The notes under the pieces are model-generated. The model was given only the letters and a program-made list of their open reading frames with translations, did not search any database and was not told the DNA's origin. The translations under genes were made by a program, and so were the position numbers. Positions 17,966 through 21,726 of a DNA stretch of 41,010 bases are shown here, piece by piece. Position 1 is the stretch's first letter, and every line of letters starts with the position of its first letter. Source of the stretch: an uncultured Solirubrobacteraceae bacterium (lineage in GTDB: Bacteria; Actinomycetota; Thermoleophilia; Solirubrobacterales; Solirubrobacteraceae); the NCBI GenBank assembly GCA_902806205.1, contig CADCVR010000105.1:1-41010 (forward strand), read 5' to 3'.

Positions 17966-19324
17966 TCAGCTCCACCGTCGGATGTCGACGAAACGGCCTT
18001 CGATCGCCGCGGCGGCGGCCATCTGCGGCGAGACGAGGTGCGTCCGGGCGCCCTTGCCCTGGCGCCCCTCGAAGTTGCGATTCGACGTCGAGGCGACCCG
18101 CTCGCCCGGCGCCGCGATGTCCGGGTTCATCCCCAGGCACATCGAGCAGCCCGCGGCACGCCAGTCGAAGCCCGCGGCGCGGAAGATCTCGTCGAGCCCC
18201 TCGGCCTCGGCCTGGGCCTTGACCTGCACCGAGCCCGGGACGACCATCGCGTCCACGCCGCCCGCGACCGTGTGGCCCGCGACGACCTTCGCCGCCGCCC
18301 GCAGGTCGCCGATGCGCGAGTTCGTGCACGAGCCGATGAAGACGCGGTCGAGCGTGATCTCCTGGATCGGCGTGCCGCCCGACAGGCCCATGTACTCCAG
18401 CGCCCGCTCCTCGCCCTCCGAGCCCGGAACCGGCACCGTCCCGCTGACCTGCGCGACCTGCGCCGGATTCGTGCCCCACGAGACCATCGGGCTGACCGCG
18501 CTCGCGTCGACGGCGATCTCCTTGTCGAAGGTCGCCCCCGCGTCGGAGCGCAGGTGCCGGAACTCGACGTCGGTGTAGGCCGGCTTCCCGCGGAGGTACC
18601 CGATGGTCGTCGCGTCGGGCGCGATCATCCCCGCGCGGCCGCCGCCCTCGATCGTCATGTTGCACATCGTCATGCGACCCTCCATGGAGAGGCCGTGGAC
18701 GACGTCGCCCGCGTACTCGACGACGTGCCCGGCCGCGCCGTCGACGCCCATCTGGCCGATCGTCGCGAGGATCAAATCCTTCGCGGTGACGCCGAAGCCG
18801 AGCTCGCCGACGTAGTTGATGCGCATGGACTTCGGCTTGCGCTGCACGAGGCACTGGGTGGCCAGCACGTGCTCGACCTCCGAGGTGCCGATGCCGAAGG
18901 CGAGCGCCCCGAAGGCGCCGTGGGTGGCGGTGTGCGAGTCGCCGCAGACGATCGTCATGCCCGGCTGGGTGACACCGAGCTCCGGGCCGATGACGTGCAC
19001 GATGCCCTGGTGCTCTGAGCCGAGCGAGTAGATCGGGATGCCGAACTCCGCGCAGTTGGCCTCGAGCGTCTCGACCTGCACCCGTGAGAGCTGGTCCTTG
19101 ATGCGCGCGGCGACGGGCGTGCCGTCGGTGGGCACGTTGTGGTCGGCGGTGGCCAGCGTCCGGTCCGGGCGGCGAACCCGGCGGCCTGCGAGGCGCAGGC
19201 CGTCGAAGGCCTGCGGGCTGGTCACCTCGTGGACGAGGTGCAGGTCGATGTAGATCAAGCCGGGAGCGACCTCGTGGGCCGCCCAGAGCTTGTCGAACAT
19301 GGACTCAGGGGAATCGGTGCTCAT
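17966..19324 (-). CDS. leuC: 3-isopropylmalate dehydratase large subunit
   Basis: Aconitase-family [4Fe-4S] subunit of isopropylmalate isomerase, 452 residues. The cluster ligands are the Cys of [11 protein letters not shown] and the two of [12 protein letters not shown]. Also seen are [20 protein letters not shown] and [10 protein letters not shown]. It probably serves both leucine and, through citramalate from cimA, isoleucine synthesis. The ATG overlaps the regulator stop in ATGA, so leuC translation is tied to the XRE-cupin gene. Confidence 0.96.
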
Positions 19325-19908
19325 GAGCGTCGCAGCCCGGCCGACACGATGGCCAGCAGGACCGCCTCCTCTCGGGTGGGGTTCTCGAAGTGGTGCTCCA
19401 GGTCGGCGTCGAACGTCACGCAGTCGCCCTCGGTGAGCGTGTGCTGCTCGCCGTCGATGACGAGGATCAACCCGCCGCGCTCGACCAGCGCGACCTCGCG
19501 GGCACCGGCCTCGTGCATCGGCGGGTCGCCCTGCGCGCCGGTGCGGGCGCCCGGCGCGAGCACGTGCCGCGACAGCTCGGCGCGCTGGCCGGGCAGCGGC
19601 GGGGTGAGCAGCTCGAAGCGGTGGCCGCCGCCCCCGCCGCGCCGACGGTCCGCGGCGCGGACGACGGAGACGGCGCCGCCCTCATCGAGGCGCAGGAGCT
19701 GCGAGAGCCGCAGGCCGAGCCCCTGGGCAATGCGCGAGGCGATCTGCAGCGTCGGAGAGGTCTCTCCCCGCTCAACCTGGGACAGCATGGGCGCCGACAC
19801 CCCCGAGCGCTCGGCGAGGTCGCGCAGCGAGAGGCCCGTCGCCTCCCGCAGGGCCCGGACGCGCGGCCCGATCGGGATCTGCTGCTCGAGGGGCTCCACG
19901 ATGGCCAT
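19321..19908 (-). CDS. XRE-family regulator with C-terminal cupin domain
   Basis: 195 residues. An XRE-type helix-turn-helix occupies about 14-70 ([20 protein letters not shown] then [23 protein letters not shown]). A cupin sensor domain covers about 105-190, with [28 protein letters not shown] and HHFEN. XRE-cupin proteins usually sense small metabolites or metals. It is the first gene of the leuCD unit and overlaps leuC by 4 nt. A perfect 12-bp inverted repeat begins directly at its start codon and spans a TAACGT -10-like box, so autorepression is likely. A role in controlling leucine synthesis is inferred from context only. Confidence 0.88.
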
Positions 19909-19950: not shown

Positions 19951-21582
19951 CTACGGCGTGGGGCTGGGCAACGCGGGGACGGCGGGCGCGGCGGCGAGGG
20001 TGGTCGCCTTCGAGACGGCGTTGGACAGCGCGCGGGCGTAGGCGGTCGCCGCCGCGGCGATGATGTCCGTCGCGACGGCCTGGCCCGCCCCCGTCACGCG
20101 CTCCCCGGTCAGCAGCCCCGGTGTGACGTTGCGGACCGCCGCCGCCGGATCGCCGAGCTCGAGTACGACACTCACCTCGCCGAGCGCGTCGGCCTCGCCG
20201 GTGACCGCGTCCACGCGGAACTCGCGCAGCCGGCCGTCGACGCCCGTGGCGGCATTGAGCGCCTTGAAGATGGCGTCGACGGGGCCGTCACCGGTGAAGG
20301 AGCCCTCGGTGACGTCGCCGTCGGGGCCCTTGACCGCGACGGTCGCGTGCGGCGGGCGGCGCGAGGAAGCCTCCACGTCGAACCACTCGATCGTCCACCC
20401 CGCGTGCTCGGTACGCAGCTCGTCGGTGACCAAGGCCTCGAGATCCATCGCCGAGACGCTCTTCTTGCGGTCGGCGACATCCTTGAAGCGCGTGAAGGCC
20501 GCGTTGAGCGCCTGACCCTCGACCGCATAGCCGAGCTCCTCCAGCGCCGCCTTCAGCGCCGCGCGGCCCGAATGCTTGCCGAGCACGAGCGCGTTGGTCT
20601 CCAGCCCCACGGTCCGCGCGTCCATGATCTCGAACGTCGAGCGGTCCTTGAGCACGCCGTCCTGGTGGATCCCCGACTCGTGGGCGAACGCGTTACGGCC
20701 CACGATCGCCTTGTTCGGCTGCACGACGTAGCCCGTCAGGCGGCTCACGAGGCGCGACGCGCGGGCGAGCTCGGTCGTCTCGACCCCCGTGTGCAGCCCG
20801 TCCGCGTGACCGCCGCGCACGTGCAGCAACATCACGATCTCCTCCAGCGACGCGTTGCCCGCCCGCTCGCCGATGCCGTTGATCGCGCACTCCACCTGCC
20901 GCGCGCCGGCCTGCACGCCGGCGAAGGAGTTGGCGACCGCCAGGCCGAGGTCGTCGTGGCAGTGGGTGCTCAGCGTCGCGGAGCGCAGGTCGGGCACGAG
21001 CGCGTAGAGGCGGGTGAGGAACGCCGCGTACTCCAGTGGCATCGCGTAGCCGACGGTGTCGGGGACGTTGATGACCGTCGCGCCCTCGTCGAGCGCGATC
21101 TGCAGCACCTCGGCGGTGAACCCGACGTCCGCTCGGGTCGCGTCCATCGGTGAGAACTCGACGTCGTCGACGAGCGCCTTGGCCTGGGCGACCGAGGCGC
21201 GCGTGAGACCCTTGACGTCCTCGCGGCTGGCCTTGAGCTGGTGCTCGATGTGGATGTCGGAAGTGGAGACGAAGGTGTGGATGCGAGGTCGCTCCGCGTC
21301 GCGGATCGCCTCGAAGCAGCGGTCGATGTCGCCCGCGTTGGCCCGCGCGAGCCCGCAGACGACGGGCCCGCGGACCTCTCGGGCGATGACCTGGACGGCC
21401 GCGAAGTCGCCCGGGGAGGCGATCGGGAACCCGGCCTCGATGACGTCGACGCCGAGCCGCGCGAGCTGGTGGGCGATCTCGAGCTTCTCGCTCGCGTTGA
21501 GCGAGATGCCGGGCGACTGTTCGCCGTCGCGCAGGGTCGTGTCGAAGATCTGGACGCGTCGGGCGTCGGTGCTGGCGGACAT
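19951..21582 (-). CDS. leuA: 2-isopropylmalate synthase
   Basis: Condenses 2-oxoisovalerate with acetyl-CoA, the first committed step of leucine synthesis. The 543 residues start near FDTTLRDGEQSPGISL, with metal ligands in HCHDDLGLAVANS and NGIGERAGNASLEE. HESGIHQDGVLKD and LGKHSGRAAL follow in the accessory domain. The allosteric leucine-binding domain is at about 390-510, and the tail is Ala/Pro-rich. A strong AAGGAG ribosome binding site precedes the ATG, unlike most genes here, which fits a transcript with a real leader. That leader encodes a Leu-rich peptide. The dedicated cimA elsewhere in the window suggests this copy is the leucine enzyme. Confidence 0.96.
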   Translation of the reverse strand: MSASTDARRVQIFDTTLRDGEQSPGISLNASEKLEIAHQLARLGVDVIEAGFPIASPGDFAAVQVIAREVRGPVVCGLARANAGDIDRCFEAIRDAERPRIHTFVSTSDIHIEHQLKASREDVKGLTRASVAQAKALVDDVEFSPMDATRADVGFTAEVLQIALDEGATVINVPDTVGYAMPLEYAAFLTRLYALVPDLRSATLSTHCHDDLGLAVANSFAGVQAGARQVECAINGIGERAGNASLEEIVMLLHVRGGHADGLHTGVETTELARASRLVSRLTGYVVQPNKAIVGRNAFAHESGIHQDGVLKDRSTFEIMDARTVGLETNALVLGKHSGRAALKAALEELGYAVEGQALNAAFTRFKDVADRKKSVSAMDLEALVTDELRTEHAGWTIEWFDVEASSRRPPHATVAVKGPDGDVTEGSFTGDGPVDAIFKALNAATGVDGRLREFRVDAVTGEADALGEVSVVLELGDPAAAVRNVTPGLLTGERVTGAGQAVATDIIAAAATAYARALSNAVSKATTLAAAPAVPALPSPTP

Positions 21583-21661
21583 GCTGGTCTCCTTGCTTGA
21601 AGGCTGAGGGCGACTGCTTGGCTTCTCTCGCGGCTGTCAGGCGGCCGCCACGCGCGAACGG

Positions 21662-21677
21662 TTCCCCTAGCGGGGAA
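21662..21677 (-). promoter_or_regulatory. Hairpin at the end of the leuA leader peptide
   Basis: On the minus strand TTCCCC-GCTA-GGGGAA is a perfect 6-bp stem that covers the Pro-Arg-stop codons of the leader peptide. A ribosome stalled at the Leu codons just upstream would leave it free to form, while one reaching the stop would open it. Downstream, GCGGC/GCCGC pairs could form further stems. Confidence 0.45.
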
Positions 21678-21711
21678 GGAGAAGTCGGAGCAGCGCAGAG
21701 GAGAACGGCAT
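21667..21711 (-). CDS. Leucine-rich leader peptide MPFSSALLRLLLPR (candidate leuA attenuator)
   Basis: A 14-codon frame upstream of leuA reads MPFSSALLRLLLPR. Five of 14 residues are Leu, encoded CTG CTC CTT CTC CTT; CTT is uncommon in such GC-rich DNA. A TAGCCT -10-like box ends 9 nt before the ATG, so the peptide would be translated from a near-leaderless mRNA. A perfect hairpin covers its last codons, and leuA starts 84 nt downstream. Leu-rich leader peptides before leuA are an established attenuation device in actinobacteria and others. Confidence 0.7.
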   Translation of the reverse strand: MPFSSALLRLLLPR

Positions 21712-21720
21712 CCGCCCGGC

Positions 21721-21726
21721 AGGCTA
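21721..21726 (-). promoter_or_regulatory. -10-like box of leuA (TAGCCT, 9 nt before the leader peptide)
   Basis: TAGCCT on the minus strand; same hexamer as before leuB and menB. It would place the transcript start within a few bases of the leader-peptide ATG. No good -35 is seen. The stretch up to the permease stop at 21804 has no gene. Confidence 0.5.

What the first reader, a model, noticed from the sequence alone, without database searches (positions are those of the whole stretch)
21583..21726. Candidate leucine attenuator before leuA with a near-leaderless 14-residue leader peptide
MPFSSALLRLLLPR lies between a TAGCCT box and leuA. It has five Leu in a run of seven positions around one Arg, two of them CTT codons. 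A perfect TTCCCC/GGGGAA hairpin covers its last codons and stop. leuA itself has a strong AAGGAG site, unlike most neighbours, as expected for a gene with a real leader. Leu-rich leaders upstream of leuA are established in actinobacteria; this one is new to this lineage as far as I can tell.
Basis: partly seen in the sequence, partly recalled or inferred. Interest (0 to 1): 0.68.

Follow-up and report, generated by a model that had tools for sequence, protein, structure and literature searches.

The report
Leucine-sensing leader RNA upstream of leuA
Just before the first leucine-making gene, these soil bacteria carry a short RNA switch: a tiny leucine-rich peptide gene whose own RNA can fold onto the start of the leucine gene and probably shuts it until leucine runs short; it is conserved across a whole bacterial order, I found no description of it there, and it resembles a predicted switch known from their relatives.

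Summary
The 14-codon frame MPFSSALLRLLLPR (minus strand, 21711-21667), its TAGCCT box and its TTCCCC/GGGGAA hairpin are where stated. All 30 leuA upstream regions read from genus, family and order carry the same kind of frame, with a TANNNT box 7-11 nt before its start in 30/30 (1 match in 3,900 control bases). The lineage is Solirubrobacterales (Thermoleophilia).

The element is larger than reported: leader ORF, hairpin over its stop, a compact H-type pseudoknot, and a long stem in which the leader ORF pairs with the leuA upstream region. In most members the Leu codons pair with a purine segment, and the leader's first codons with leuA's SD/start codon in one fixed register. Covariation supports each part. 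No T-run exists, so intrinsic termination is unlikely.

Best model: translational attenuation. A ribosome stalled on Leu codons keeps the leader off the leuA start site. One genome has a non-orthologous leuA instead, yet keeps this element before a leuS-leuA operon.

Closest known: the actinomycete LEU element (2005), similar in layout, with different helices and no significant two-way sequence match. Rfam has no family. New variant of a known kind; mechanism unproven.

The parts
21721..21726 (-). -10-like box TAGCCT; predicted transcript start within a few nt of the leader ATG
   Evidence: TANNNT ends 7-11 nt before the leader start in 30/30 relatives; 1 match in 3900 control bases
21667..21711 (-). 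Leader ORF MPFSSALLRLLLPR*, near-leaderless
   Evidence: Read directly; 30/30 homologous leaders
21676..21693 (-). Leu codon run CTG CTC CGA CTT CTC CTT (codons 7-12)
   Evidence: CTT enriched about tenfold over leuA genes
21662..21677 (-). Hairpin HP1 TTCCCC-gcta-GGGGAA over last codons and stop
   Evidence: 96.6% of cells paired, 7 sequences with UA for CG at one pair; CCGC/GCGG version in L196/L197
21651..21653 (-). Pseudoknot helix, 5' strand GCG
   Evidence: Pairs with 21641-21643; strand swap CGC/GCG in L036 and L037 visible in alignment
21644..21648 (-). Hairpin HP2, 5' strand GCGGC
   Evidence: 97.8% paired, GCGCC/GGCGC double change in L024; GCCGG/CCGGC in family f7
21641..21643 (-). 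Pseudoknot helix, 3' strand CGC in the HP2 loop
21630..21634 (-). Hairpin HP2, 3' strand GCCGC
21679..21684 (-). Stem P1b, leader strand: Leu codons CTTCTC
   Evidence: Pairs with 21622-21627; self versus swapped p = 2.5e-4 (helix length) and 5e-5 (energy)
21622..21627 (-). Stem P1b, downstream strand GAGAAG
21689..21693 (-). Middle stem, leader strand CTGCT
   Evidence: Pairs with 21614-21618
21614..21618 (-). Middle stem, downstream strand AGCAG
21699..21711 (-). Stem P1a, leader strand: start codon and codons 2-5 (ATGC 21711-21708, TCTCCT 21704-21699)
   Evidence: Pairs with leuA SD/start; fixed register in 51 elements, p = 2e-4
21581..21593 (-). Stem P1a, leuA strand: AGGAGA 21593-21588 (SD) and GCAT 21584-21581 (start codon)
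21589..21594 (-). leuA Shine-Dalgarno AAGGAG
19951..21582 (-). leuA, 2-isopropylmalate synthase (leuA_bact / PRK00915 type)
   Evidence: NCBIfam, 699 bits

Best explanation
This is a cis-acting, leucine-responsive leader RNA that controls leuA mainly at translation start. Shown by sequence comparison: the leader ORF, the hairpin over its stop (HP1), the pseudoknot behind it, and the capacity of the leader ORF to pair with the stretch up to and including the leuA SD and start codon. Inferred: transcription starts at or next to the leader AUG and a ribosome translates the nascent leader. With enough Leu-tRNA it finishes and leaves, the leader folds back on the leuA start region, and leuA is off; the leader's own start codon is then buried in the same stem, which would lock the state. 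With too little charged Leu-tRNA the ribosome stalls on the CTT/CTC run, the leader strand stays occupied, and the leuA start site stays open. HP1 and the pseudoknot probably space and time the two halves; their exact role is unknown.
For: Leader in 30/30 leuA upstream regions. HP1, HP2 and pseudoknot pairing with two-sided changes, 0/500 shuffles on the covariation score. Leader pairs better with its own downstream region than with that of other species: duplex -28.9 versus -24.3 kcal/mol, p = 5e-5; whole-fold pairing 0.459 versus 0.365 swapped and 0.28 shuffled. Leu-codon helix, own versus swapped, p = 2.5e-4, with clear double changes: CTTCTTC/GAAGAAG in L019, CTACTTCTCC/GGAGAAGTAG in L025, CTTCTTCTTC/GAAGAAGAAG in L026, TCGTCTCCT/AGGAGACGA in L022. 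Leader start pairs with gene start only in register 0 (3.57 versus 2.79 of 7, p = 2e-4, 51 elements, no other shift). Blocking the leader raises predicted openness of SD/start from 0.41 to 0.59. No T-run, U-poor spacer (5.9% T). CTT enrichment. In genome G024 a strong copy precedes a leuS-leuA operon whose LeuA is the other, non-orthologous type, 900 bits to NF002991, so the element follows leucine function, not one gene.
Against: No transcript, ribosome-profiling or reporter data. The SD-only pairing test is weak (p = 0.026), and in some members (L013, L018, L022) the leader barely covers the SD/start in the fold. For the related LEU element, published S. coelicolor leader mutations were reported as not consistent with classical attenuation (as summarised in PMC1262725). 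Swap tests do not fully remove shared ancestry.
Confidence: 0.66

Rival explanations
1. Transcription attenuation: stalling in the leader decides whether RNA polymerase terminates before leuA, by an intrinsic or Rho-dependent terminator.
For: Classical Leu leaders with T-run terminators do precede leuA in other classes of the phylum (L050, L062, L064). Leader ORF and hairpin are the usual parts.
Against: No run of four or more T between HP1 and the gene in any of 31 elements; spacer is A/G-rich with 25% C, not a C-rich Rho loading site. The conserved downstream pairing reaches the leuA start codon, which a terminator would not need.
Confidence: 0.14
2. The pseudoknot is the binding site of a protein or other factor that senses leucine or Leu-tRNA; the leader peptide is secondary. 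Seliverstov et al. 2005 proposed protein binding for the LEU element.
For: GCGUGGCGGCCGC is conserved beyond what pairing needs, and a similar GCGUG-CGGCCGCC stretch is what the actinomycete model R2 aligns to.
Against: The Leu run, its CTT bias and the leader stem recur in the members examined; HP2 is replaced by another stem in family f7, and two members of f2 have a different HP2 (L031, L033).
Confidence: 0.12
3. Arrest peptide: the nascent peptide senses free leucine and stalls the ribosome near ...LLLLPR*.
For: Conserved (D)LRLLLLP motif near the C-terminus.
Against: Peptide ends differ freely (PR, PLRGE, PPRGE, PSGS, PLSGE); the shared residues are explained by RNA pairing and Leu codons.
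Confidence: 0.04
4. Chance: a short frame and an incidental hairpin in GC-rich DNA.
For: The single window sequence has no unusual folding energy.
Against: 30/30 conservation, covariation, positioned -10 box, 29 of 30 best covariance-model hits directly before leuA.
Confidence: 0.01

Closest known systems
LEU element upstream of leuA in Actinomycetes (Seliverstov et al. 2005, PMC1262725; LeuL1 MRFGLLLLSCRGEGL in Streptomyces lividans, PMC8079986)
   Same: Leaderless Leu-run leader ORF, H-type pseudoknot behind it, stem between leader and leuA start region, no terminator, and a similar leader-to-gene distance (114-156 nt there, 115-143 nt in 50 of 51 here). In family f3 (L036, L037) the Leu run pairs directly with the leuA SD, as in the LEU element.
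   Different: Different helices and sequence: here a separate hairpin over the stop plus a compact pseudoknot; there the leader codons are part of the pseudoknot. Here the leader start pairs with the gene start in a fixed register, absent in 27 actinomycete elements. Different LeuA type. Model R1 does not find LEU elements significantly; R2 finds these elements only weakly, 22 of 30 in place with E of about 0.002-0.5.
Classical leu operon attenuator (intrinsic terminator; leucine operon leader)
   Same: Leader peptide rich in codons of the pathway's amino acid, stalling as the signal
   Different: No terminator or T-run; no Rfam match
Leaderless poly-cysteine short ORF attenuators of mycobacteria (Canestrari et al. 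2020, cited in PMC9094748)
   Same: Leaderless regulatory short ORF with a run of one amino acid before a biosynthetic operon
   Different: Leucine, defined pseudoknot and start-site pairing; that paper was not held, so not compared in detail
Translational attenuation of erm genes (e.g. ermB, PMC8274638, seen as abstract)
   Same: Ribosome stalling in a leader ORF frees the downstream start site
   Different: There stalling is caused by an antibiotic; here it would be shortage of charged Leu-tRNA, and the leader ORF itself is the blocking strand

Membership tests
LEU element (Seliverstov 2005) | Lies upstream of leuA | tested here: met
   30/30 relatives and 29 of 30 best model hits; one before leuS-leuA
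LEU element (Seliverstov 2005) | Leader ORF with a run of Leu codons | tested here: met
LEU element (Seliverstov 2005) | Pseudoknot behind the Leu run | tested here: met
   H-type topology with covariation, but different helices from those in A3
LEU element (Seliverstov 2005) | Base stem pairs the Leu codon run with the leuA SD | tested here: inconclusive
   In the window codons 3-5, not the Leu codons, pair with the SD; the Leu codons pair about 28 nt further upstream. Leu run x SD is seen in family f3
LEU element (Seliverstov 2005) | Recognisable by a sequence and structure model | tested here: inconclusive
   R1 on actinomycete loci not significant; R2 on these loci weak but in place in 22 of 30
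Classical leu attenuator with intrinsic terminator | GC hairpin followed by a T-run before the gene | tested here: not met
   No run of 4 or more T in 31 elements
Any Rfam 15 family (including T-box and leu leader) | Covariance model match | tested here: not met
   No match at gathering score; best chance hits E > 3
Leaderless regulatory short ORF | Transcript starts at the leader AUG | not testable with these tools
   TANNNT position fits; no RNA-seq held
Leaderless regulatory short ORF | Response to the encoded amino acid | not testable with these tools
   Needs experiment

The most novel reading that the evidence does not exclude
A two-start-codon switch: the leader start codon and the target start codon pair with each other, so translating one excludes folding that closes the other. 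It would be a self-locking translational attenuator, kept through replacement of the enzyme by a non-orthologous one, and distantly related to the actinomycete LEU element with a shared GCGUG-CGGCCGCC core that an unknown factor may read.
Probability: 0.25. Interest if true: 0.7.

Novelty: new variant of a known kind. Interest (0 to 1): 0.52.

Why it matters
The leuA leader of actinobacteria has been an open puzzle since 2005: a Leu-run leader without a terminator, with mutant data that did not fit classical attenuation. A second, differently built version with strong covariation, including pairing of the leader's start with the gene's start, makes a translational mechanism directly testable. 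The genome in which the enzyme is of another type but the RNA is kept is a natural experiment suggesting that the RNA serves leucine supply. It also gives a candidate new RNA family for Solirubrobacterales, a poorly studied order.

Tried and rejected
Single-sequence folding gave no signal. Rfam gave nothing. A copy before leuS as a general rule: rejected, 1 of 30 leuS upstream regions; most others look leaderless. A second copy in the own genome: none convincing (next best 21 bits). Wide spread in the phylum: rejected, 9 of 296 genomes at E <= 1e-5, all in the same class. Two model hits of 39 and 32 bits in family f36 lie at the end of a coding gene and are not leaders (L185, L191), so hits under about 40 bits without a leuA or leader context are not counted. 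Start-to-start pairing in the actinomycete LEU elements: absent. Alignment A2 holds low-scoring chance matches, so its counts are not used as main evidence. Whole-genome codon use could not be computed; leuA genes served as control. One search failed for a mistyped structure and was repeated.

Full report
WHAT IS THERE. On the minus strand the window holds leuA (19951-21582; 699 bits to NF002086 and 644 bits to TIGR00973) with SD AAGGAG at 21594-21589. Upstream lies ATG CCG TTC TCC TCT GCG CTG CTC CGA CTT CTC CTT CCC CGC TAG (21711-21667), nine bases after TAGCCT (21726-21721). TTCCCC/GGGGAA (21677-21662) spans its last codons and stop. Folded alone, the region is not unusual (z = 0.07), so only comparison can decide.

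CONSERVATION. LeuA was sought in 40 relatives. In all 30 upstream regions read, a short Leu-rich frame lies 115-171 nt before leuA. Named relatives with the element include Conexibacter arvalis and a Solirubrobacter sp., order Solirubrobacterales, class Thermoleophilia. TANNNT ends 7-11 nt before the leader start in 30/30; the same pattern occurs once in 3,900 control bases. This fits a leaderless or near-leaderless transcript. CTT is 30.8% of leader Leu codons and 2.9% in the same genomes' leuA genes.

ANATOMY. Alignment A1 shows HP1 over the stop, either with the stop in a GCTA(G) loop or closed by UUCG/CUCG loops with the stop just behind. Behind it is GCG-UG-GCGGC-CGC-x-GCCGC, which can form an H-type pseudoknot. 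Cells paired: 96.6% (HP1), 90.1% (pseudoknot), 97.8% (HP2); the covariation score was reached in 0 of 500 shuffles and fell on sliding. Double changes include GCGCC/GGCGC (L024) and, read by eye from the sequences, the strand swap CGC/GCG (L036, L037). Family f7 keeps GCG/CGC but has GCCGG/CCGGC as HP2, and genus g84 has CCGC/GCGG as HP1.

THE LEADER-TO-leuA STEM. The leader pairs with the region between HP2 and leuA better in its own genome than when swapped among species (-28.9 versus -24.3 kcal/mol, permutation p = 5e-5; whole-fold version p = 5e-5). Two conserved parts emerge. P1b: Leu codons with a GGAGAAG-like segment about 30-40 nt before the leuA ATG; own versus swapped p = 2.5e-4 for helix length. 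P1a: the leader start codon and next codons with leuA's SD and start codon, in a fixed register; only shift 0 of nine shifts is above swapped pairs (p = 2e-4, 51 elements). In the window: AUGC x GCAU, UCUCCU x AGGAGA (SD), CUGCU x AGCAG, CUUCUC x GAGAAG. In family f3 the Leu run pairs directly with the SD. Blocking the leader in silico raises SD/start openness from 0.41 to 0.59 on average. This openness is a prediction, not a measurement.

TARGETS. With model R1, 29 of the 30 best hits in 199 genomes of the class lie directly before leuA. By my count of the table, 51 of 53 genomes of the order have a hit; at least one of these (G178, L198) is not a leader. The exception among the best 30, G024 (63.8 bits), lies before leuS (938 bits to leuS_bact), followed about 76 bases later by a LeuA of the other, actinomycete/yeast type (900 bits to NF002991), while this genome has no LeuA of the usual type in the assembly. 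Its leader start pairs with the leuS start (GUGACGC x GCGUCAU). Other leuS genes of the group have no element. It is a single draft assembly, so a chimeric contig cannot be fully excluded, though the site is inside a 37.8-kb contig.

MECHANISM. No run of four T follows in any of 31 elements and the spacer has 5.9% T, so intrinsic termination is unlikely, and a C-rich Rho site is not evident. The data fit translational attenuation: a stalled ribosome on the Leu codons keeps the leader off the leuA start site. Shown: conservation, pairing potential, association with leucine genes. Inferred: transcript start, translation of the leader, stalling, and the direction of control.

COMPARISON WITH WHAT IS KNOWN. 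Seliverstov et al. 2005 (PMC1262725) described the LEU element before leuA of most actinobacteria then sequenced: Leu-run leader, pseudoknot, stem between the Leu run and the SD, no terminator. The S. lividans leader MRFGLLLLSCRGEGL is leaderless (PMC8079986), and locus L041 has exactly this peptide. I rebuilt that element from 23 actinomycete loci. The two designs have similar leader-to-gene distances, but the helices differ, the start-to-start register is absent there, R1 does not find them significantly, and R2 finds 22 of 30 of the present elements in the right place but only weakly, through the Leu codons and a GCGUG-CGGCCGCC stretch. Distant common descent is possible and unproven. Rfam 15 has neither. 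The library held no paper naming both Thermoleophilia and a leader peptide; that library lacks most subscription journals.

VERDICT. Real, conserved and more elaborate than reported; a new variant of a known kind. The existence of the element is close to certain; the translational mechanism is my best estimate at about two in three.

Noticed in passing
L050, L062, L064 upstream of leuA: Other classes of the phylum have classical Leu leaders before leuA (e.g. ending SALLLL*) followed by GC hairpins and TTTTTT, so transcription attenuation and the present design coexist in one phylum.
   Followed up: partly
L065 3017-3106 and L068 3006-3101 (minus): A LEU element of actinomycete type (R2, E 4e-5 and 2e-4) precedes the other, PRK00915-type leuA, so the LEU element is not tied to one LeuA type.
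   Followed up: partly
L072 (record titled Bifidobacterium breve MAG): Its leuA is 68% identical to the window's and carries the Solirubrobacterales leader; the record name is probably wrong or the bin contaminated.
   Followed up: no
L195 and L075 upstream of leuA: A further version: Leu-rich leader and CCCCC hairpin kept, but followed by a GTTTGCC-CGTG-CGGCAAAC hairpin instead of the GCGGC pseudoknot.
   Followed up: no
L196, L197 (genus g84): Leader has alternating Ile and Leu (RSILILPLSGE), which may sense isoleucine as well.
   Followed up: no
leuS upstream regions L206-L234: leuS is itself apparently leaderless in this group: a TANNNT-like box about 9 nt before the start codon in many members.
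   Followed up: no
window 19321-19908 minus: An HTH-type regulator (PuuR-like, weak match) lies between leuA and leuC; its role in leucine control is unknown.
   Followed up: no
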